DNA of 64,000 nucleotides from NCBI RefSeq assembly GCF_014400405.1, contig NZ_CP060496.1, forward strand, positions 1,798,001-1,862,000, written 5' to 3'. The notes beneath the pieces were generated by a model, which worked only from the letters and a program-made list of their open reading frames with translations, ran no database searches and was not told the DNA's origin. A program made the position numbers and the translations under genes. Source of the stretch: Brachybacterium sp. Z12. GTDB taxonomy: Bacteria > Actinomycetota > Actinomycetes > Actinomycetales > Dermabacteraceae. This document shows positions 49,088-64,000 of this stretch, piece after piece (the first letter of the stretch is position 1; each line of letters opens with the position of its first letter).

Positions 49088-49250
49088 AGTCCGTCGGTCT
49101 GGGAACGGAACGGCCCGTTGTGCCGGGCGGCACCGCATTAGGATTGGGGTCACCCGAGCTCGGGTCCGCCGCGACCGTCGGAGCTCGCCTGGTGACGCAC
49201 ATCGGGGTCAGACAGCACAACACGCGCCGGAGAGCGCGGATGGAGGACAT

Positions 49251-50679
49251 GTGTTCAACAATCCCAGCGAGGTCGTGAAGTACATCGAGGAGGAGGGTGT
49301 CGAGTTCGTCGACATCCGCTTCTGCGACCTTCTCGGCGTCATGCAGCACTTCAACATCCCGGCGAGCACCTTCGACGAGGAGGCCATCGAGGTCGGCCAG
49401 CTCTTCGACGGCTCCTCGATCCGCGGATTCCAGGCGATCCACGAGTCGGACATGAAGCTCGTGCCCGATCTGGAGACCGCGTACCTGGATCCGTTCCGCG
49501 ACCGCAAGACCCTCATCATCAACTTCTCGATCGTGGATCCGTTCACGGATGAGCCCTACTCCCGTGACCCCCGCACGGTCGCCTCCAAGGCGGAGGAGTA
49601 CCTGAAGACGACCGGCATCGCCGACACCGCGCTGTTCGCGGCCGAGGCCGAGTTCTACATCTTCGACGATGTGCGCTTCAAGACCGGAGTGAACTCCGGC
49701 TTCTACCAGATCGACTCCGACGAGGCCGTCTGGAACACCGACCGCGACGAGTCCGAGTACGGCGGCAACCAGGGCTACAAGACCCGCCTCAAGGGCGGCT
49801 ACTTCCCCGTCCCCCGAACGATCAGATGGCCGACCTGCGTGACGAGATCTGTGCCGTCCTCGAGGAGACCGGCCTCCAGGTCGAGCGTGCCCACCACGAG
49901 GTCGGCACCGCGGGCCAGCAGGAGATCAACTACCGCTTCAACACGCTGCAGCAGGCCGCTGACGACGTCATGAAGTTCAAGTACGTCGTGAAGAACACCG
50001 TGTGGGACGCCGGCAAGACCGCAACGTTCATGCCCAAGCCCCTCTTCGGTGACAACGGCTCGGGCATGCACACCCACCAGTCCCTGTGGAAGGACGGCGA
50101 GCCGCTGTTCTACGACGAGCGCGGCTACGGGGGTCTGTCCGACATCGCCCGCTGGTACATCGGCGGGATCATCGAGCACTCCCCTTCGCTGACGGCTTTC
50201 ACCAACCCGACGGTGAACTCCTTCAAGCGCCTGGTGCCCGGCTTCGAGGCACCGGTGAACATGGTCTACTCGGCCCGCAACCGTTCCGCCGCGATCCGCA
50301 TCCCGGTCACCGGCGCTTCCGCCAAGGCCAAGCGCGTCGAGTTCCGTGCACCGGACCCCTCGGCGAACCCGTACCTGGCCTTCGCCGCGCAGCTGATGGC
50401 GGGCATCGACGGCATCCGCAACCGCATCGAGCCCCGGAGCCGATCGACAAGGACCTCTACGAGCTGCCCCCGGAGGAGCACAAGCAGATCAAGCAGCTGC
50501 CCGAGTCGCTCGGTGCGGCCCTGGACGCCCTCGAGGCCGATCACGACTACCTCACCGAGGGCGACGTGTTCCCCGAGGATCTGATCTCGACCTGGATCGA
50601 GCTCAAGCGCACCACGGAGATCGATCCGTTCCGCTACCGCCCGCACCCGCACGAGTTCGAGCTGTACTACGACATCTGA
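49251..50679 (+). CDS. glnA: Glutamine synthetase type I
   Basis: Makes glutamine from glutamate and ammonia; a cytoplasmic dodecamer. Motifs: [48 protein letters not shown] (metal Glu), [17 protein letters not shown], and [20 protein letters not shown]. The Tyr of [12 protein letters not shown] is the likely adenylylation site of the GSI-beta type. Two missing Cs, at the C-runs near 49811-49815 and 50431-50436, break the frame; repair gives 477 residues. GTG 49251 follows a GGAGGA site. A 163-base gap to the RDD gene holds the promoter. The stop and last codons form the left repeat of the integrated element; the coding end is intact. Confidence 0.96.
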
Positions 50680-50680
50680 G
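50660..50680. repeat. attL core repeat, in the glnA end
   Basis: 21 bases identical to 62225-62245, covering the codons for LYYDI, the TGA stop and one further G of glnA. The flanking bases differ (G and G here, C and T at the other copy), which fixes the length. Confidence 0.9.
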
Positions 50681-50753: not shown

Positions 50754-50821
50754 GTAGGCTCAAGTCATACGGAGTACGACCGAGCTATCGCACGGTTGTC
50801 GCATGACTTGGAGGTCAAAGG

Positions 50822-51961
50822 GTGGTAACTACTCGACGTCGCGGACGTCGCTCATTCGGGGCGGTACGGAGGCTTCCCAGCGGCAGGTACCAGGCGAGCT
50901 ACCTGGACCCTGCGGGGACGCGCCGTACCGCCCCGGAGACGTTCACAGCCAAGATGGACGCGGATGCGTGGCTGGCGATGCAGCGAGCCGCCATCGAGAG
51001 CGGGTCGTGGCGTGGCCGCGACGACCGCACGACCGTCGGCGAATTCGCGGACCAGTGGGCCAAGGCGCTCCAGGTGCGCGACCGCACGCGGTACCACTAC
51101 CAGGTGAACCTCGATAAGTGGATCAAGCCCACCTTCGGCACCACTCCCATGAGCGCTGTCACCCCGGCGATGGTGCGCAAGTGGGTTGGCGGGTTCCCCT
51201 CGGATACCCCGGCTGCTCGCGCCAACGCCTACAGGGTCCTGTCCCAGGTGTTTCGTGCAGCCGTGGAAGACGGGATCGTCACCGAGTCGCCGGTGAGGAT
51301 GAAAGGCGCCGGCCAGTACACCCGGAAGCGTGAAGGACATGCTCTGCAGGCCGCCGAGGTCTTCATGCTCTCCGAGAGAGTTCCTGAGGGCCGCCGACTG
51401 GCGATCCTCCTCGGTGCCTTCTGCGCCCTTCGCCCGGGAGAGGTGCTCGGACTCCGCCGGCGCGACGTCGACCCTCGGAGCCACTCGCTCAACATCCGTG
51501 AGACAGCTTCTGCTGTGCACGCCGGCTCTGCGCGTGTAGGTCCCGTCAAGACCGCGAGCAGCGTGAGGACCGTCCACTACCCGTCAGCCCTCCAGGAGGT
51601 CGTCCTAGGGCATCTGAAGACGCACACGGGACCGTCGCCGACCGACCACTTGTTCCCGTCTCCACGAGGCGGCGGTCAGCCGCTCTCCTACGGCGCGTAC
51701 CTCCACATGTTCGCCCGCGCAGCTGAGGCCGCCGAACTGGCAGATCTCAAGCCTCACGACCTCCGGCACACCGGCGCCACGCTGGCAGCCGAGACAGGGG
51801 CGACGACGCGCGAGCTGATGGCACGCCTCGGGCACACGTCCCCCACCGTTGCCATGCGGTACCAGCATGCAGCCAAGGAGCGCGACAAGAGCATTGCCGA
51901 TGCATTGGGCGGAGCCTTCTCCGTTTCATCCCCAGGGGCTGAAGGGACGCCCGATGAATGA
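50822..51961 (+). CDS. int: Tyrosine site-specific recombinase (integrase)
   Basis: Catalyses integration and excision at the glnA end. 379 residues, intact. An N-terminal arm-binding part (RRSFGAVRRLPSGRYQASYL), a SAM-like core-binding domain (TVGEFADQWAKALQVRDRTR) and a catalytic domain. Active-site residues seen: Arg in ALRPGEVLGLRRRD, Lys region in VGPVKTASSVRT, HxxR in LKPHDLRHTGATLA, His in MARLGHTSPTVA and the nucleophile Tyr in AMRYQHAAKE. GTG 50822, preceded by a GGAGGTCAAAGG site. It faces into the element, 140 bases from attL. The stop overlaps the next gene by 8 bases. Confidence 0.95.
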   Translation: MVTTRRRGRRSFGAVRRLPSGRYQASYLDPAGTRRTAPETFTAKMDADAWLAMQRAAIESGSWRGRDDRTTVGEFADQWAKALQVRDRTRYHYQVNLDKWIKPTFGTTPMSAVTPAMVRKWVGGFPSDTPAARANAYRVLSQVFRAAVEDGIVTESPVRMKGAGQYTRKREGHALQAAEVFMLSERVPEGRRLAILLGAFCALRPGEVLGLRRRDVDPRSHSLNIRETASAVHAGSARVGPVKTASSVRTVHYPSALQEVVLGHLKTHTGPSPTDHLFPSPRGGGQPLSYGAYLHMFARAAEAAELADLKPHDLRHTGATLAAETGATTRELMARLGHTSPTVAMRYQHAAKERDKSIADALGGAFSVSSPGAEGTPDE

Positions 51962-57535: not shown

Positions 57536-58080
57536 AGCCTCCGCTCGTGCGTCTAACTGTCGGCGGGGTGACGAGGGGTTCGTGGCCCGCGAATGAATCC
57601 TGTCGCTCCCCGGTCGGTGGCGGCGATAAACGCGGCCTGATCTGCGAAGCTCACTGGACCCTGACCATGTCGGCTCGTGATCATCTTGAACGCTCCGACG
57701 AAGGGCTCGTGGTCGACCGCCTTGAAGCTGCTCCAATAGCGCGCAATAAATGTGCAGTACAAGCATCTTTCAGCGCTTCCTCTAGGCTCCAGTCAGGCAT
57801 TGTCTGCACGCGTGACCGGGTGCAGCGGCGCGCGGCCAGCGGACTGTGACCTGCCGAGTCAGCAGCCCTCGCCGACTCGCTCCTCCCAAGCGAAACCGTG
57901 TACTTGGGCACAGCCCGGGTGCACCTTCGGTGGTCTTGCTTACCTACCGATGAATCCCGCGGACGATCCCTGGGCACTGCCGAGGAACCCAAACTTGCCT
58001 GCGATGAGACCCGGAACCGTGCAACCCGTCCTGCCCGCTTTTCGTGCAACGCACGAACTCATCTCAGCGATACTGGGTCC
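57536..58080. other. Gap with at most a doubtful minus-strand ORF
   Basis: No clear gene in 545 bases. A minus-strand frame 57553-57762 (69 residues, containing FKAVDHEPFVGAFKMITSRH and FADQAAFIAATDRGATGFIR) has protein-like composition but no start signal and no family; it may be a remnant. The last 100 bases must contain the promoter of the restriction operon at 58081. Confidence 0.4.
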
Positions 58081-59515
58081 ATGTCGACTCCCACCGCTAC
58101 CTCCCCGATGAAGCTCCTGGACGACCTGTACAACCGGGCCACGTCGACGTCGGACCAAGGGACGCAGTTCGAGAGGTTCACGGCATCCTTCCTCCAGGTC
58201 GATCCGCTGTGGTCGGAGCAGTTCGCGAAGGTGTGGATGTGGGATCAGTGGCCGGATAAGTGGGGTCATGACTCCGGGATCGACCTGGTGGCGGAGCGCC
58301 GCGATGGCGGGCTCACGGCGATCCAATGCAAGTTCTACGCGCCGTCTCACAGGGTCTCGAAGGCGGATCTGGACAAGTTCCTCGCTGCCTCGGGGCGTGG
58401 GGGCTTCACGGAGCGCCTGGTGGTGTCCACGACGACGCATTGGGGTGCAACGGCGGAGGAGACGATCCGGGAGCAGTCCGTGCCAGTGCGGCGCCTGGGG
58501 CTTGCGGATTTCGAGCAGTCCCGTATTGACTGGGCCACCTTTGATCCCGCGACGCCCACCGTGCTCTCACTCTCGGGCGCACTTTACCGCCCGTTTTACG
58601 TTCAACACCTGAACGTCAGCGCTGGCCTTGTTGACAGGCCCGCTATCTCTCGACGTTACTTTCCCACCCCTCGCCACCCTAATTTCGGGTTCTATGTGAC
58701 TGGTGCCGGCTCTGACAAAGAGTTCTCTGTTCTGGGGTCGCGCTTAATCCCAGACCTTGCGTTATGGGGATCGTCAAGCGGCCAGTTTCTCGCCCGCTTC
58801 AGTTGGGCCCCTCTCCCGGACGGAGAACTTGACCTTGGCCTCAACGACGACATAGTCGAGGGCTACCGCCGCGTCGACAACATCACCGACGAGTTCCAGC
58901 GGCTCATTAGCAAGCGCTACGGCGCCGAGGTCACCAAGGACGACATCTTCTTCTTCCTTTACGGCCTACTCCACTCCCCGAGTACCGAGAGCGCTACACC
59001 GCAGAGCTGAAGCAGATGCTCCCCGAATCCCGAACGTCCCTGCTGAGTCATTCGGGGTGTTCACGTCGGCCGGCCGGGAGCTATTCGCCCTGCATGCCGA
59101 CTACGAGGATGCCGAGCCCTACCCGCTGACGGTCAAGGATGGCGAGCAGCCGCCGATGGGCGGCGAAGAGGAGTACTACCGCGTCGAGAAGATCCGCTTC
59201 CCCGCCGGGAAGCGAGCCGCCGACGCCCCCGACACACTCATCTTGAACCCCAACCTCACCGTCACAGGTATCCCGGAAAAGGCCTACCGCTACCAGCTCG
59301 GCTCCCGCAGCGCGATCGAGTGGATCATCCGGCAGTACCAGGTCACCACCGACAAGGCCTCCGGGATCGTCAATGACCCGAACCGGTGGGGCCTGGAGCA
59401 TGGCAATCCCCGCTACATCCTCGACCTGATCCAGAAGGTCGTCACGGTGTCAGTGCGGACGGTGGAGATCACGGAGGGCCTGCCTGCGCTCGGCAGCGAG
59501 GGAACAGCATCATGA
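58081..59515 (+). CDS. ISP-type restriction enzyme reduced to nuclease plus target-recognition region
   Basis: About 478 residues. Residues 1-160 match the N-terminal Mrr-like nuclease domain of single-polypeptide type ISP enzymes: VWMWDQWPDKWGHDSGIDLV, then LTAIQCKFYAPSHRVSKADL (PD-(D/E)XK Asp and QCK), and RRLGLADFEQSRIDWATFDP. In ISP enzymes this linker leads into a RecA-type helicase and an N6-adenine methyltransferase of some 800-1000 residues. Here both are missing and the chain goes straight to the C-terminal target-recognition part: ALYRPFYVQHLNVS, YFPTPRHPNFGFYVTGAGSD, LIPDLALWGSSSGQFLARFS, DIFFFLYGLLHSPEYRERYT, MLPRIPNVPAESFGVF. Two missing Cs (near 58976 and 59022) are needed. The stop overlaps the next gene by ATGA. 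It is either a deletion remnant or a new two-domain nuclease. Confidence 0.8.
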
Positions 59516-60876
59516 CGGACTGGCTCATCGCCTCGGATGGGGCGAAGTTCGATGTCAACCGCGCGTTCTCTGAGCGCACTGTCGTGGACTGGAGCGAGAC
59601 GTCCAGCGCTCACATCCACGACGGGGATCGTGTGTTCCTGTATCAGGTGAAGCCGGTCCAAACGATCACCCACGTCTGCGAAGTCGTCCAGACGGGCATC
59701 GAAAGCGACGACATGCTCGACGACCGCGAGTTCTGGATCGACGCTGCAGCGTTCGAGGAGCGTCTAAAGCGGACGTGGATGAGGCTCTCGCTTCTGCACA
59801 CTGTGCCGCCAGCCCTCCGAGGAGAGCTCTCGCTCGAGCGCCTACTAGACGCAGGGCTCAACGGGGCGCCGCAGGGACGGAGGCGAGCGCCTGTGGGCGT
59901 GACCGAGCTAGTCACCGAGGTCCTCGACGCGGCTCAGCCGGACTCCTCGGAGCTGATCCGCCGCGAGAGGGATCTGATTGCGGACCTCGGCATCGAGCGG
60001 TCGCCGTGGAGGTTCAAGAGAGGCAGGCGCGGCGGTACACGGTCGCTCGAGTCGTTCTCCTACGCGCTGTCGATGCCTGACGCTCCGACAGCCCTTGCCA
60101 TGCTGCGTGCGTACCTCACTGCCGCGGGTCTTGATCGGTCGGAGGGCTGGGGCGTCTCCGCGATGCCAAGCTGGGCCGGTCCGACAGATCATCAGCGCTT
60201 CGCCACGATCTCCGGTGGTGGCATTGAGCTCTTCTACGTGTGGTTCGAGTCGGCCAGCGGACTGGTCACAGAGTGGGGAGCTCGCTTCCCCGCCGACCTC
60301 GCCACACAGCTGCCTGAGTCGGAGCACATGTGGCTCAGTACCGCGGACAATGGCGACACAGGCGTGCACGGTGCGACTCTAGATGACCTGATCGCGGCAC
60401 TGGATGATCCGGAGTTCCTGGACGCTCTCACAGCCACGAGCGAGGCAAGGGCGACCTCCCGGCGAGCTGACTGGCACAACCCCTACCTGGGGTCCCTCCT
60501 CGGCACCAGCGGCGCTCCCGTGGAGGAAGAGTCAGAACCCGTCAAGGACGAGGACGTCGAGTTCGAGCGTCGCTATATCGAGCGTGTCACCAAGCACCGG
60601 CTGCATCAAGCTCCCCTCCGCGAGGCAGCGCTGCGCCGCTACGGCGCCAGGTGCATGTATTGCGGGCTGGACGTCGAGCAGGTCCTCGAGGCAGCCCATG
60701 TCATCCCGGACAGCAAGGGTGGTGCAGCGAGCACCGACAACATCCGCATCCTCTGCGCCAACCACCACACTGCGCTCGATGCAGGGCTGCTCAGAGTGAC
60801 GGCCGAGGGGGACGTGGTGCCCGCCCCAGGAGCACCGTCAGTACCGCCATCCCCCGATCAGGGCGGAGCCCCGTGA
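59512..60876 (+). CDS. EVE-like domain and HNH nuclease fusion (type IV restriction-like)
   Basis: 454 residues, intact. Residues 1-125 resemble an EVE/PUA-type modified-base reader: WLIASDGAKFDVNRAFSERT, VDWSETSSAHIHDGDRVFLY, THVCEVVQTGI, and the end LLDAGLNGAPQGRRRAP. A middle domain of about 220 residues (GWGVSAMPSWAGPTDHQRFA, IELFYVWFESASGLVTEWGA) is not recognised with certainty and loosely recalls MrcB-type N-terminal domains. The C-terminus is a complete HNH nuclease: CMYCGLDVEQVLEAAHVIPD and NIRILCANHHTALDAGLL. Reader plus nuclease suggests cutting of modified DNA. It overlaps both neighbours (ATGA, GTGA), so the three genes form one coupled unit. Confidence 0.82.
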   Translation: MTDWLIASDGAKFDVNRAFSERTVVDWSETSSAHIHDGDRVFLYQVKPVQTITHVCEVVQTGIESDDMLDDREFWIDAAAFEERLKRTWMRLSLLHTVPPALRGELSLERLLDAGLNGAPQGRRRAPVGVTELVTEVLDAAQPDSSELIRRERDLIADLGIERSPWRFKRGRRGGTRSLESFSYALSMPDAPTALAMLRAYLTAAGLDRSEGWGVSAMPSWAGPTDHQRFATISGGGIELFYVWFESASGLVTEWGARFPADLATQLPESEHMWLSTADNGDTGVHGATLDDLIAALDDPEFLDALTATSEARATSRRADWHNPYLGSLLGTSGAPVEEESEPVKDEDVEFERRYIERVTKHRLHQAPLREAALRRYGARCMYCGLDVEQVLEAAHVIPDSKGGAASTDNIRILCANHHTALDAGLLRVTAEGDVVPAPGAPSVPPSPDQGGAP

Positions 60877-61334
60877 GCGAGGTGACTTGGGTCGACATCG
60901 CTGGTCTGATCATCTCGGCGTTGACGATGCTGTCGATCGTCTTCGCCGCGACGCAGATCGTGGCTCAGACGCGGCAGATGCATCGTGACTTTGAGGCGCT
61001 CTACGTGGAGCGGTACTGGGCGCTCATGGATCGCCGCTCCGGCGAGTTCGAGCGTGGTGGGAAGCCTCGCAAGGAGGACCGTCTGGTGATCCACCAGTAC
61101 CTACAGCTCTGTGAAGACGAGATCGACCTGCGAGGCGAGGAACGGGTCACCAACGACACCTGGGGCTTCTAGGAGAGGTCGATCCGAGCGCAGGCTACTG
61201 ACCCCCGCTACTTGGCGGCTCTACGCAGCTCTGCAGCGCACGAGTACCCGAGCCTCAAGGCGTTGCTGCGCACGAAGGAGGCCTACGACCCCCTTCATTG
61301 GAAGGCCTCTCGGAGGTGGTGGAAGGGCCTCTGA
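60873..61334 (+). CDS. Small membrane protein interrupted by an in-frame TAG
   Basis: Starts at GTG 60873, overlapping the HNH stop. One N-terminal helix (VDIAGLIISALTMLSIVFAA) is followed by a helical domain: QTRQMHRDFEALYVERYWAL, VIHQYLQLCEDEIDLRGEER. A TAG at 61170-61172 stops the frame after NDTWGF, but the same frame continues as ERSIRAQATDPRYLAALRSS to HWKASRRWWKGL and a TGA at 61332-61334. The pattern fits a Trp codon changed to TAG. It resembles DUF4760-like small membrane proteins; the function is unknown. It may be a membrane partner of the restriction pair. Confidence 0.6.
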
Positions 61335-61349
61335 GGGTGCCTGCGGAGC

Positions 61350-62069
61350 CTAGGGATGGTGCGCAGAGGACATCACCTTGGCGAGCTCCTCTGGACGTAG
61401 CCAGGGCCGCGCCCGATGGATCATCCGGTGGCAGTTGGAGCAGAGCAGCGCCAGGTCCTCCAGCCGGGTCTTGACGGGCCCCGACGCATGGAGCGGAAGA
61501 CGATGATGTACCTCGATGTACCCCTCGCCCAGTGCGCCGTAGGTGGCCGCGAAGTCGAACCCGCAGACCTCGCACGCGATGGGGCGCCCCTCTGCGCGCA
61601 CAGCTGAGAGTTTCGACGCCCTCAGCGCACGGTCCCGCTCGCGTCGCAAGTGCTGCACGAAGAGTTCCCGGCCCTCATCGGCTTCGAGCACCGCATGATC
61701 GACGTCGAGCTCGATCGGAAGCAACCTGCCACCACGGATGAGTCCCTCTCGGATGCGCGCAGCCTCAGCCTGCATCTGCGAAGTGTTGGCGATGAACTCC
61801 AGGAGCACCGGCTTGTCGTGGGATCCACCGCGAGTCGGCTTCCCGGTGTACGACGGGTGCTGGGAAGCGATGTCTGCGACCTTCCTGCGCACGCTGCCCA
61901 AAGACCGGAAGTTGTCCGGTCTCCCTGCCCTGGGGTGGATGTCCGCGGCCCTCAACAGGTCCGACATTTCTTCGAGCGCCGGTGACTTCCGGTTGAGCTC
62001 ACGCCACTCGTTCCGGCTCACGAGATCACAAGCGAGGATCACTTCATCGCGCGTCCAGTCCCAAGCCAT
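61350..62069 (-). CDS. McrA-like HNH endonuclease
   Basis: 239 residues. The C-terminal HNH domain is complete: ACEVCGFDFAATYGALGEGY, IEVHHRLPLHASGPVKTRLE, DLALLCSNCHRMIHRARPW, with zinc-type Cys pairs around the His catalytic core. This is the layout of McrA-type 5-methylcytosine-dependent nucleases. The N-terminal part (LACDLVSRNEWRELNRKSPA, NFRSLGSVRRKVADIASQHP) is the recognition half and resembles the region seen in other HNH proteins of this kind. It converges on the membrane protein gene and ends 15 bases from it. It lies at the right end of the element, 155 bases from attR. Confidence 0.82.
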   Translation of the reverse strand: MAWDWTRDEVILACDLVSRNEWRELNRKSPALEEMSDLLRAADIHPRAGRPDNFRSLGSVRRKVADIASQHPSYTGKPTRGGSHDKPVLLEFIANTSQMQAEAARIREGLIRGGRLLPIELDVDHAVLEADEGRELFVQHLRRERDRALRASKLSAVRAEGRPIACEVCGFDFAATYGALGEGYIEVHHRLPLHASGPVKTRLEDLALLCSNCHRMIHRARPWLRPEELAKVMSSAHHP

Positions 62070-62107: not shown

Positions 62108-62185
62108 ATGAAAGCACCAGCGGCAGAGGGAGTTCGTGCGCTGCTCGAGCCGCTCTCGCTCACCCAAGACGCTATTGCACGGTAG
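62108..62185 (+). CDS. 25-residue ORF, probable truncated gene start
   Basis: ATG 62108 to TAG 62183-62185, encoding MKAPAAEGVRALLEPLSLTQ and five further residues. It looks like the first residues of a longer protein whose remainder was lost at the element end. The stop overlaps a TGCACG repeat. Confidence 0.3.
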   Translation: MKAPAAEGVRALLEPLSLTQDAIAR

Positions 62186-62192
62186 ATGCACG
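62176..62192. repeat. Two TGCACG repeats near attR
   Basis: TGCACG at 62176-62181 and 62187-62192, one helical turn apart (11 bases). The same hexamer forms the palindrome at 50742-50753 near attL. Possible integrase arm-type sites. Confidence 0.4.
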
Positions 62193-62224
62193 AATACACA
62201 TAACCGCAGGTCACAGGCTCTATC

Positions 62225-62245
62225 AGCTGTACTACGACATCTGAG
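62225..62245. repeat. attR core repeat
   Basis: Second copy of the 21-bp repeat. Here it is not part of a gene. It marks the right end of the element. Confidence 0.9.
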
Positions 62246-62298
62246 TCGTACGCCCTGGTGACCTGCTAGTTCACCGACCGCGTGTCCTCAGAATGTCC

Positions 62299-62443
62299 TC
62301 ACATCGCCGTGCGGTCCGCCAGAACCTTCTGGATGGCGGACCGCACGGCGTCTTCCATGTCCGGCCAGAGGTGCGCGTGAACGTCCAGCGTGGTCATCGC
62401 TGAGCCGTGCCGTAGAAGCGCCCGGTCCCCCTTCACAGGCAGC
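62299..62443 (-). pseudogene. Tail of a second tyrosine integrase, catalytic Tyr lost
   Basis: Minus-strand fragment ending at TGA 62299-62301. It reads ALLRHGSAMTTLDVHAHLWP then DMEDAVRSAIQKVLADRTAM, the standard C-terminus of actinobacterial phage-type integrases. The catalytic His (LRH) is kept, but the nucleophile position, normally Tyr in TLDVYxHL, reads His, one base from a Tyr codon. The N-terminal 300 residues are missing, replaced by the chromosomal SgcJ-type gene. Two TGTCCTCA repeats (62283-62290, 62294-62301) at its 3' end look like arm sites. It is unrelated in sequence to the integrase at 50822. Confidence 0.8.
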
Positions 62444-62448
62444 GACCC

Positions 62449-63191
62449 TCAGCCGTCGGTGCGCTCTGCCGCGGGCCGGGTGCCGGGCATCCAGAGGTAC
62501 TGGATCTGCTCCATGACCGGTTGGCGCTGGGTGTTCTGGAAGGAGGCGACCTTCCACTGCTCGCCCTCGCGCACGAGGCTATAGGTCTGCACCTTGGTCA
62601 GCTCGCCCGGGTCCTCACCTTCGTAGTTGTCGCCCCTGGTGGTCAGGACGGCCACCTCGGAGGTGAGCATCCGCAGCTCAAGGAAGCGGTCGGCGAGCTG
62701 CGTGTCGGCCAGCACGTCGTCGAACAGGGCGGCGTGGGAGCCCACGATGTCCTCGCGTCCGCTGTAATAAGTGCCCGCAAAGGTGGTGTAGGTAGCGTCC
62801 TCGGTGAACTCGGCCCCATAGGCTTCTGCATCCTGCCCGGCCCAGGCCGTGGACAGAGCATCGAGGGTGCCGCAGATCGACTCCCTGGCGGCCGACTCCT
62901 CGCCGGCGGAGAGCTGACTGCTGGTGGGCACCTGCAGGCAGTTCTCGACCCCGGTGGCCTGCACAGTGCTCGACGTCGAGAGCCAGGCGTACCCACCGGC
63001 TCCCACCAGGGCGAGGAGCCCGACGACAGCGCCGGCGGCGGTCAGCAGTCGGCGTCGCCCGCGGAGGGCCCCGCGCGGTCCTGCTGCGGACCCGAGCTCC
63101 TCCGTGCGGGCCCCGGCACCACCGTCGGCCGCCGGGTCGGGATGTATGGGGTCTTCGTCGCGTACACGCTGGGGGCCTCGAGATTCGTCAT
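62449..63191 (-). CDS. Membrane-anchored SgcJ/EcaC-type NTF2-fold protein
   Basis: About 247 residues. An N-terminal cytoplasmic part is followed by one helix (LLTAAGAVVGLLALVGAGGY) and an outer NTF2-like domain: ICGTLDALSTAWAGQDAEAY, FTEDATYTTFAGTYYSGRED, QTYSLVREGEQWKVASFQNT, as in the SgcJ/EcaC family. Enzymatic activity is unproven. The start ATG 63189-63191 (MTNLEAPSVYATKTPYIP) is in another frame; one missing C near 63137-63142 joins it. It is divergent from the MarR gene, with a palindrome between, so MarR control is likely. Confidence 0.7.
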
Positions 63192-63223
63192 GGTGTCTCC
63201 GTTCGGTGAGCGCCTCATGGACT

Positions 63224-63245
63224 ATGATTGCCGCCATGCAATCAT
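63224..63245. promoter_or_regulatory. Probable MarR operator
   Basis: Perfect 7-base inverted repeat ATGATTG-N8-CAATCAT between the divergent SgcJ-type and MarR genes. A related GCAAT...ATTGC pair overlaps it to about 63265. Position and symmetry fit a MarR-family site that controls both genes. Confidence 0.55.
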
Positions 63246-63308
63246 TGCTGGCATGCAACTATTGCGCAAGAGGTACCCTTTGAGGGCCACCGAGACCCCG
63301 GAGGGACC

Positions 63309-63751
63309 ATGAACCCCGACCCCGCCCAGCGCGGCCACAACCTCGATCGCGAGTACCGGTACTACCTCTCGGCGGTCACCCAGTTCCATCTCGCCGCGGC
63401 GGAGGCCGGCGGTCTCCACCCCACGGACTATCAGGCCAGCAGCATCCTGGACCTCGACGGTCCGCTCACCTCCGGTCAGCTCTCACAGCGGCTCGGGCTC
63501 TCCCCAGTGCCACCACCCGGGTCATCGACCGTCTGATCACCGCAGGCATCGCCGAGCGCAACCCGGACGAGGCAGATCGGCGCCGCGTGATGGTGGCCCA
63601 CACCGGCCACCTGCCTGCTGCGGTCATGGACCGTCTGGCGCAGGTCCGCGATCCCATCGCGCAGGTGGTCACCGATCTGAGCGAGGAGCAGCGCCAGGGG
63701 CTCATGGAGTACTTCCAGGCAGCGGCGAAGGCCTATCGTGACGGGTCCTGA
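63309..63751 (+). CDS. MarR-family transcriptional regulator
   Basis: About 147 residues. Winged-HTH signature: PTDYQASSILDLDGPLTSGQ, LSQRLGLSPSATTRVIDRLI, AERNPDEADRRRVMVAHTGH. One missing C near 63506 joins the two halves. The start ATG 63309 follows a GGAGGG site. It probably represses itself and the divergent gene through the palindrome at 63224. Confidence 0.85.
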
Positions 63752-63868: not shown

Positions 63869-64000
63869 ATGAGCAGCATCGAGATCACAGTCATCGACCG
63901 CGAAGGCGTCAAGACCCCGGGCGTGGAGTGGGAGGACGGCGAGTCCCTCATGGAGTGCCTCGTCCGCAACAGCTTCCCGATCCTCGCGATCTGCGGCGGC
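63869..64000 (+). CDS. [2Fe-2S] ferredoxin, 3' end cut by window
   Basis: The first 44 residues are visible: MSSIEITVIDREGVKTPGVE, then DGESLMECLVRNSFPILAIC and GG. The final Cys-Gly-Gly is the start of the cluster loop of plant-type or vertebrate-type ferredoxins. The rest lies beyond the window. Electron partner unknown. Confidence 0.75.
   Translation, partial: MSSIEITVIDREGVKTPGVEWEDGESLMECLVRNSFPILAICGG

What the first reader, a model, noticed from the sequence alone, without database searches (positions are those of the whole stretch)
62283..62443. Dead second integrase just outside attR: repeated use of one hotspot
An unrelated integrase tail lies 54 bases beyond attR with its own TGTCCTCA arm-like repeats. 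Its catalytic Tyr reads His. An older element probably entered the same glnA site, decayed, and the present element inserted between it and glnA.
Basis: partly seen in the sequence, partly recalled or inferred. Interest (0 to 1): 0.55.

Follow-up and report, generated by a model that had tools for sequence, protein, structure and literature searches.

The report
Integrase fossil kept at glnA end
Just past a mobile element lies the last scrap of an older element's integrase from the same insertion site, the end of the glutamine synthetase gene; the scrap still forms a strong hairpin that may have replaced the gene's lost transcription stop signal.

Summary
Minus-strand 62299-62436 is the last ~46 codons of a tyrosine integrase, truncated, catalytic Tyr read as His, 54 bp past attR (21-bp core, 62225-62245) with two TGTCCTCA repeats. 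It belongs to an integrase clade specific for the 3' end of glnA: of 80 relatives kept from a scan of named genomes, 74 run convergently towards glnA, and 10 of 13 carriers tested show a second glnA end downstream. The present element's integrase is unrelated, so two lineages use one site; fossils occur at glnA in other genomes too.

New beyond the finding: elements here push glnA's own hairpin away (strong hairpins outside attR in 13 of 13 measured elements; one is itself a fossil's), and this clade carries one of its own beside or inside the integrase's last codons (72 of 74 junctions above the shuffled 95% level; 78 compensatory cells against 19.8 shuffled). Fossils shrink to roughly that hairpin (17-bp perfect stem here). 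I propose that the host keeps it as glnA's replacement terminator; that step is untested.

The parts
49230..50679 (+). glnA (glutamine synthetase), the insertion target; split over three frames by assembly indels; start approximate
50660..50680 (+). attL core, 21 bp, last codons and stop of glnA
50822..51961 (+). integrase of the present element (379 aa), parallel to glnA, unrelated to the fossil
62206..62214 (+). GCAGGTCAC just inside attR (present element); inverted match to 62258-62266
   Evidence: sequence
62225..62245 (+). attR core, exact copy of the glnA 3' end
   Evidence: the short core pattern occurs twice in this genome
62258..62266 (+). GTGACCTGC beside the core, on the older element's side
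   Evidence: sequence
62283..62290 (+). TGTCCTCA, first arm-like repeat of the older element
62294..62301 (+). TGTCCTCA, second arm-like repeat, period 11, overlaps the stop codon of the tail
62299..62436 (-). integrase fossil: last ~46 codons incl. stop; carries the LRH signature of the glnA-specific clade
62305..62350 (.). 17-bp perfect inverted repeat with 12-nt loop inside the fossil (hairpin)
62377..62379 (-). CAC (His) where the clade has the catalytic Tyr
62449..63258 (-). DUF4440/SnoaL-like gene between the fossil and ferredoxin; possibly cargo of the older element
63869..64000 (+). ferredoxin-like gene, directly behind glnA in six same-genus genomes

Best explanation
The tail is the remnant of an older integrative element of a glnA-specific integrase clade that inserted at the last codons of glnA, with its integrase gene pointing back at glnA. 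A later, unrelated element recombined at the same core, so the remnant now lies beyond attR (shown: site, clade, layout; inferred: order). Elements of this clade restore the glnA stop codon from their own core and push glnA's native hairpin kilobases away; they bring a hairpin of their own between the two convergent stop codons or within the integrase's last codons (shown: a strong hairpin outside attR and another at the glnA side, and covariation; inferred: that they terminate transcription). When the element dies, deletions remove nearly everything except this hairpin end, because glnA still benefits from it (inferred). The first part (older element at the same hotspot) I hold at 0.93; the terminator-retention part at about 0.5.
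For: Full-length relatives convergent with glnA: 13 of 14 and 74 of 80, 65 of the 74 within 200 bp of glnA's stop, the furthest 2.2 kb. Tree: all 74 plus the 6 others in one clade, support 100/100, with the 16 non-glnA integrases and the window's present integrase outside. The fossil has LRH where other integrases have LGH; 13 of the 14 full-length rows have RH there too, L098 has GH. Second copy of the glnA 3' end downstream on the same strand in 10 of 13 tested full-length genomes; in G160 it is on another contig; in G121 and G078 the pattern matches nothing, glnA included. Cores 20-29 bp for the 11 clade elements compared, some cut short by the stretch compared. Tandem layout in G408. Hairpin: 72 of 74 junctions above the shuffled 95% level, median 45 against 20; 29 glnA ends of the genus without these elements, median 44. 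Outside attR the best hairpin scores 35-59 in 13 of 13 elements (11 of this clade, two of the present type), just inside it 18-24 (G408's outer one is the fossil's). Covariation in 44 sequences: 94.7% of 789 cells paired against 83.0 shuffled; 78 double-change cells against 19.8. Control with the integrase's middle: no glnA relic that keeps the middle but lost the tail, against eight tail-only relics at glnA or a glnA-end copy plus a weaker ninth, G030. Window hairpin folds at -43.9 against a shuffled mean of -26.6 kcal/mol, 1 of 200 shuffles folding as well.
Against: Order of insertion rests on decay only. The tail-only relics were found with a tail query, and the tail is the glnA-proximal piece, so retention is partly expected without selection. 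Strong hairpins are expected at convergent gene ends in general. The window's stem has no U tract. Three of 16 integrase ends away from glnA also have a hairpin above 27, and 2 of 74 glnA junctions (L165, L166) do not. Present-type elements (G000, G004, G010, G021) have only background hairpins at attL, so a strong hairpin is not needed at that site in every carrier. In five clade members no glnA was found in the 3 kb behind the integrase nor a core-like sequence in the 700 bases searched.
Confidence: 0.8

Rival explanations
1. The tail is a plain fossil: deletions from the far flank into the element always leave the glnA-proximal end, and that happens to be the integrase tail. The hairpin has no present role.
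For: The tail is the glnA-proximal piece; the query was the tail. Two longer decayed relics exist (G274, G348).
Against: In eight tail-only relics (window, G014, G016, G030, G199, G404, G264, G408) the stem is 15-21 bp with 0-1 mismatch although the rest of the gene is gone; the ninth, G181, has a different stem next to glnA. In G264, G408, G199 and G404 integrase similarity stops a few tens of bases past the stem (by eye).
Confidence: 0.3
2. The inverted repeat is a DNA site: a third, inverted copy of the integrase arm-type repeat, kept for recombination, and a hot spot for deletions, which is why relics end near it.
For: In many members the arms contain the 8-bp repeat AGTCCGCA and its inverse; palindromes favour deletion (general knowledge).
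Against: Double changes also occur in pairs beyond the 8-bp repeat (columns 12-15 and 18). In Pseudarthrobacter/Arthrobacter and Microbacterium members the hairpin has another sequence and lies elsewhere. In the window the stem does not contain the TGTCCTCA repeats. A.C cells are rarer than G.T cells on the glnA strand (13 against 37, shuffled 23.5 and 45.9), weak support for RNA.
Confidence: 0.2
3. Reverse order: the present element entered first and the fossil's element then used the attR copy of the core.
For: Either core copy can serve as attB; the layout alone does not decide.
Against: The fossil is truncated while the present integrase is intact; G408 also has the intact element next to glnA and the fossil outside.
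Confidence: 0.15

Closest known systems
Tyrosine-recombinase integrative elements at 3' ends of genes (tRNA, tmRNA and protein-gene targets; recalled)
   Same: int next to the core, core restores the end of the target gene, direct-repeat arm sites, tandem stacking at one site
   Different: target is glnA; the element also carries a covarying hairpin at the convergent int/target junction
Phage_integrase family PF00589
   Same: the present integrase matches; the fossil aligns to full-length clade integrases
   Different: the fossil keeps only ~13% and lacks the catalytic Tyr
Related integrases beside RNase P RNA (L023/L113, L024, L027, L112)
   Same: integrase next to an essential gene's end; RNase P RNA found beside them
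   Different: outside the glnA clade in the tree where included (L112, L113)
Capsid-carrying phage satellites (recalled)
   Same: ~10-kb clade elements G145 and G391 carry an HK97-type capsid gene, and G145 a small terminase gene
   Different: no helper known; only a sample of their genes was scanned

Membership tests
glnA-specific integrase clade (defined here) | integrase convergent with a glnA 3' end or its core copy | tested here: met
   fossil points at the attR copy of the glnA end, 54 bp away
glnA-specific integrase clade (defined here) | C-terminal sequence similarity incl. LRH in place of LGH | tested here: met
   tail HMM hit E 6.8e-24, with the caveat that the fossil itself is a row of the model
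glnA-specific integrase clade (defined here) | paired arm repeats of period 11 and a strong hairpin at the junction | tested here: met
Active tyrosine recombinase (PF00589) | full catalytic set ending in Tyr (motif recalled) | tested here: not met
   only the C-terminal part remains and Tyr reads His
Integrated element with both att sites | direct repeat of the target end at both borders of the older element | tested here: not met
   the exact core pattern occurs only twice in the genome, both at borders of the present element; a decayed third copy was not sought
Intrinsic terminator | stable GC-rich stem-loop | tested here: met
   z -5.1
Intrinsic terminator | U tract after the stem | tested here: not met
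   window stem is followed by TCTTCCATGT
Intrinsic terminator | stops transcription in vivo or in vitro | not testable with these tools
   no transcript data

The most novel reading that the evidence does not exclude
A pan-actinobacterial lineage of mobile elements inserts behind the essential gene glnA and pays for displacing its terminator by carrying a replacement hairpin, often written into the last codons of its own integrase. When an element dies, the host keeps just that hairpin, so scraps of dead integrases serve as the terminator of glnA (terminator domestication).
Probability: 0.42. Interest if true: 0.72.

Novelty: new variant of a known kind. Interest (0 to 1): 0.55.

Why it matters
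It identifies the 3' end of glnA as a recurrent insertion site across Actinomycetota, used by two unrelated integrase lineages, and offers a testable reason why integrase tails persist after the element is gone: they may have become the terminator of an essential gene. If so, mobile elements supply regulatory parts to the genes they exploit, and fossil tails mark old insertions.

Tried and rejected
Pfam on the 55-aa tail gave nothing useful. DNA similarity of the outer flank (21 of 58 genomes with a match, own genome included) was mostly short, weak matches; the two strong ones (G043, G015) concern the DUF4440 gene. Phages and plasmids: the tail gives 11 phage records, all under 60% identity; a full clade integrase gives four phage records (two Corynebacterium phages, each listed twice) at 33% and no plasmid, so no isolated phage with a close relative was found there. 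Literature: the searches listed no paper that by its title or the start of its abstract describes glnA as an attachment site (one search listed 20 of 30 papers, 12 of 19); I opened no paper, so I only say these searches did not show one. The six clade members without glnA: one (L218, Nocardia) sits at a core copy; in the other five no core-like sequence was seen in the 700 bases searched behind the integrase. Rows left out of the covariation count: one search gathered 69 sequences (18 more skipped or duplicate; 14 keys dropped beforehand as repeats); I gave only 44, those with the 18-14-18 layout, G014, G016 and L184 with coordinates corrected by hand. Members with another hairpin and the window itself, whose stem is shifted by an insertion, were left out, which favours pairing. 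Of the 53 genomes with a tail match I fetched 12 further stretches; not every remaining match was checked for glnA. Two tail fragments (G398, G181 contig 34) are not next to glnA. I take the genus to be Brachybacterium from gene content; that is recall and no call names it.

Full report
What is there. The 21-bp sequence that ends glnA (50660-50680) is repeated exactly at 62225-62245; between them lies an ~11.5-kb element whose 379-aa integrase (50822-51961, plus strand) matches PF00589. Beyond the second copy, the minus strand encodes VKGDRALLRHGSAMTTLDVHAHLWPDMEDAVRSAIQKVLADRTAM and stops at 62299-62301. Upstream in the same frame there is a stop at the end of a DUF4440/SnoaL-like gene (62449-63258), so about 46 codons are all that is left. 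Two TGTCCTCA repeats 11 bp apart precede it; the spaced pair is expected 0.04 times in the window and occurs once.

What it is. The tail first led to other genomes: nine of 98 genomes matched, the window's own included, among them G014 and G016 of the same genus, where the match lies just behind glnA and convergent with it. A full-length version was found behind glnA of G078, a member of another family. With that protein as query, 62 of 396 genomes of the order matched at E <= 1e-30; the 14 best have at least 45% identity. For 13 of these 14 glnA lies convergently, 6-172 bp away stop to stop; of the other 16 loci fetched, none has glnA. The fourteenth (G193) has no glnA in the 967 bases before its contig ends, but a copy of the glnA end about 0.3 kb from the integrase. 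A scan of named genomes kept the best 80 of 276 relatives; 74 of 80 have convergent glnA, 65 of them within 200 bp and all within 2.2 kb of the integrase match. They come from Micrococcales, Geodermatophilaceae, Micromonospora, Rhodococcus, Mycolicibacterium, Nocardioidaceae and others. In a maximum-likelihood tree of 97 rows all 80 form one group with support 100/100, and the 16 controls and the window's present integrase lie outside; the six rows without glnA are scattered inside the group, and the label needs 6 changes in all. The fossil aligns with the clade's C-terminus and shares LRH where other integrases have LGH (13 of 14 full-length rows have RH, L098 has GH), with His only here at the catalytic Tyr.

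The site. A short core pattern was found in 18 of 20 genomes. Of 13 full-length carriers tested, 10 have a second copy downstream on the same strand (9.0 to 88.9 kb), G160 has it on another contig, and G121 and G078 do not match the pattern at all. G014, G016 and G030 (fossils) and G021 (where only the first 195 residues of a present-type integrase matched) have one copy; G000, G004 and G010 have two. In 31 further genomes of the genus 29 match; G012 has a second nearby copy that I did not follow. Compared ends give cores of 18-29 bp for 13 elements, 20-29 for the 11 clade elements. The best hairpin within 150 bases outside attR scores 35-59 in all 13 (11 of the clade, two of the present type), and 18-24 just inside attR, as expected if glnA's own terminator was pushed away. 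In G408 the outer hairpin belongs to another integrase tail with its repeats: the layout of the window.

Same genus. glnA ends were found in 37 of 38 genomes, and 36 stretches behind glnA were fetched (one of 500 bp is uninformative). Six have the ferredoxin gene directly behind glnA and four more further on. The present-type integrase follows glnA in G004 and G010 (74% and 76%) and in part in G021 (86%). Fossil tails follow glnA in G014 and G016, and a weaker one in G030 (E 0.014, with repeats and hairpin). So in the window the stretch from 62246 to the ferredoxin gene also separates glnA from the neighbour seen in those six.

The hairpin. Within 150 nt behind glnA the best stem-loop score has median 45 in 74 named junctions, against 20 in shuffled copies; 72 of 74 exceed the shuffled 95% level of 27 (L165 and L166 do not). 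Twenty-nine glnA ends of the genus without such elements have median 44. Sixteen integrase ends elsewhere have median 21, three above 27. Four present-type junctions score 19-24 (all). A common layout is an 18-bp stem with a 14-nt loop inside the last integrase codons. In 44 sequences of that layout 94.7% of 789 cells are paired (shuffled 83.0), 78 cells have changes on both sides (shuffled 19.8), 8 of 18 pairs show them, and sliding the partner lowers the covariation score from 0.319 to at most 0.103. These 44 were chosen for the layout. In Pseudarthrobacter/Arthrobacter relatives (L160, L169, L170, L173, L174) and Microbacterium (for example L200, L209, L211) the coding palindrome is missing and a stem of different sequence, some with flanking A and T runs, lies nearer to glnA. 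The window's stem is 17 bp and perfect (62305-62350); its left arm contains about 10 bases that other members lack, which also shift the integrase frame; they complement the right arm, as a templated insertion would (by eye, inference). It folds at -43.9 kcal/mol, z -5.1, with 1 of 200 shuffles folding as well.

Fossils. A tail profile matched 53 of 396 genomes. Beyond the genus, tail-only fossils lie at glnA in G181, G199, G264 and G404, and at the attR of G408; longer, broken ones in G274 and G348 (for G264 and G408 the evidence is the profile match, since tblastn showed no integrase there). Stems: window 17 bp, G014 21 with one mismatch, G016 18, G030 15, G199 20, G404 19, G264 17, G408 20; G181's strongest stem is a different one, next to glnA. 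As a control the middle of the integrase (171 positions) was sought in the same genomes: it finds the 14 full-length members, G274, G348 and 13 more distant places in 12 further genomes and G408. glnA is on 15 of the 29 loci: 13 full-length ones, G274 and G348; on none of the 13 distant ones. So no glnA fossil was seen that keeps the middle and lost the tail. This asymmetry fits retention of the hairpin, but a deletion from the far side also leaves the glnA-proximal end, so it is not proof.

How it most likely works. Shown: insertion at the end of glnA by a dedicated integrase clade, restoration of the stop codon by the core, a strong hairpin outside attR, a covarying hairpin on the element side, reuse by an unrelated integrase. 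Inferred: that the hairpins end transcription; that selection for the element's hairpin explains the shape of the fossils; that the fossil's element came first. The present element runs parallel to glnA and brings no strong hairpin.

Signs of life in the clade. In Nocardia australiensis the junction of both element ends around the core is found on two contigs, beside attL-like and attR-like copies: either an excised circle or a tandem array.

Noticed in passing
window 49230-50679: glnA, an essential gene, is spread over three reading frames and the genome's completeness is 85.7%; the assembly probably has many indel errors.
   Followed up: partly
L340, L341 (G145, G391): Elements of ~10 kb with the glnA-specific integrase carry an HK97-type capsid gene; G145 also a small terminase subunit and a DUF3987 helicase: satellite-like.
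   Followed up: partly
L023, L024, L027, L112, L113: Related integrases lie beside the RNase P RNA gene, another essential-gene end.
   Followed up: partly
L300 and L133 (G199, G186): Short repeats that contain the end of glnA (ACATCTGA) follow glnA in G199 and the attR copy in G186.
   Followed up: no
L218, L219 and G409 contigs C13, C16, C17: Nocardia australiensis holds attP-like, attL-like and attR-like junctions of one element on several contigs.
   Followed up: partly
L109 about position 678 (G193): A copy of the glnA end without glnA lies 0.3 kb behind a clade integrase: attR of a neighbour, or an excised form.
   Followed up: no
window 50780-50806 and 62168-62194: The present element has its own paired repeats (about NTNGCACG, period 11, the second left copy imperfect) near both ends; similar repeats without an integrase follow glnA in G013 (L083).
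   Followed up: partly
window 57898-62069: Cargo of the present element includes an Mrr-type nuclease with a Type ISP C-terminal domain and two HNH proteins.
   Followed up: partly
window 62449-63751: DUF4440/SnoaL-like gene and a frame-broken MarR-like gene (named by eye; Pfam gave no match for its pieces) between fossil and ferredoxin; DNA relatives of the former in G015 and G043.
   Followed up: partly
G012:C2:243337-243351: A second copy of the glnA 3' end 9 kb downstream although ferredoxin follows glnA directly.
   Followed up: no
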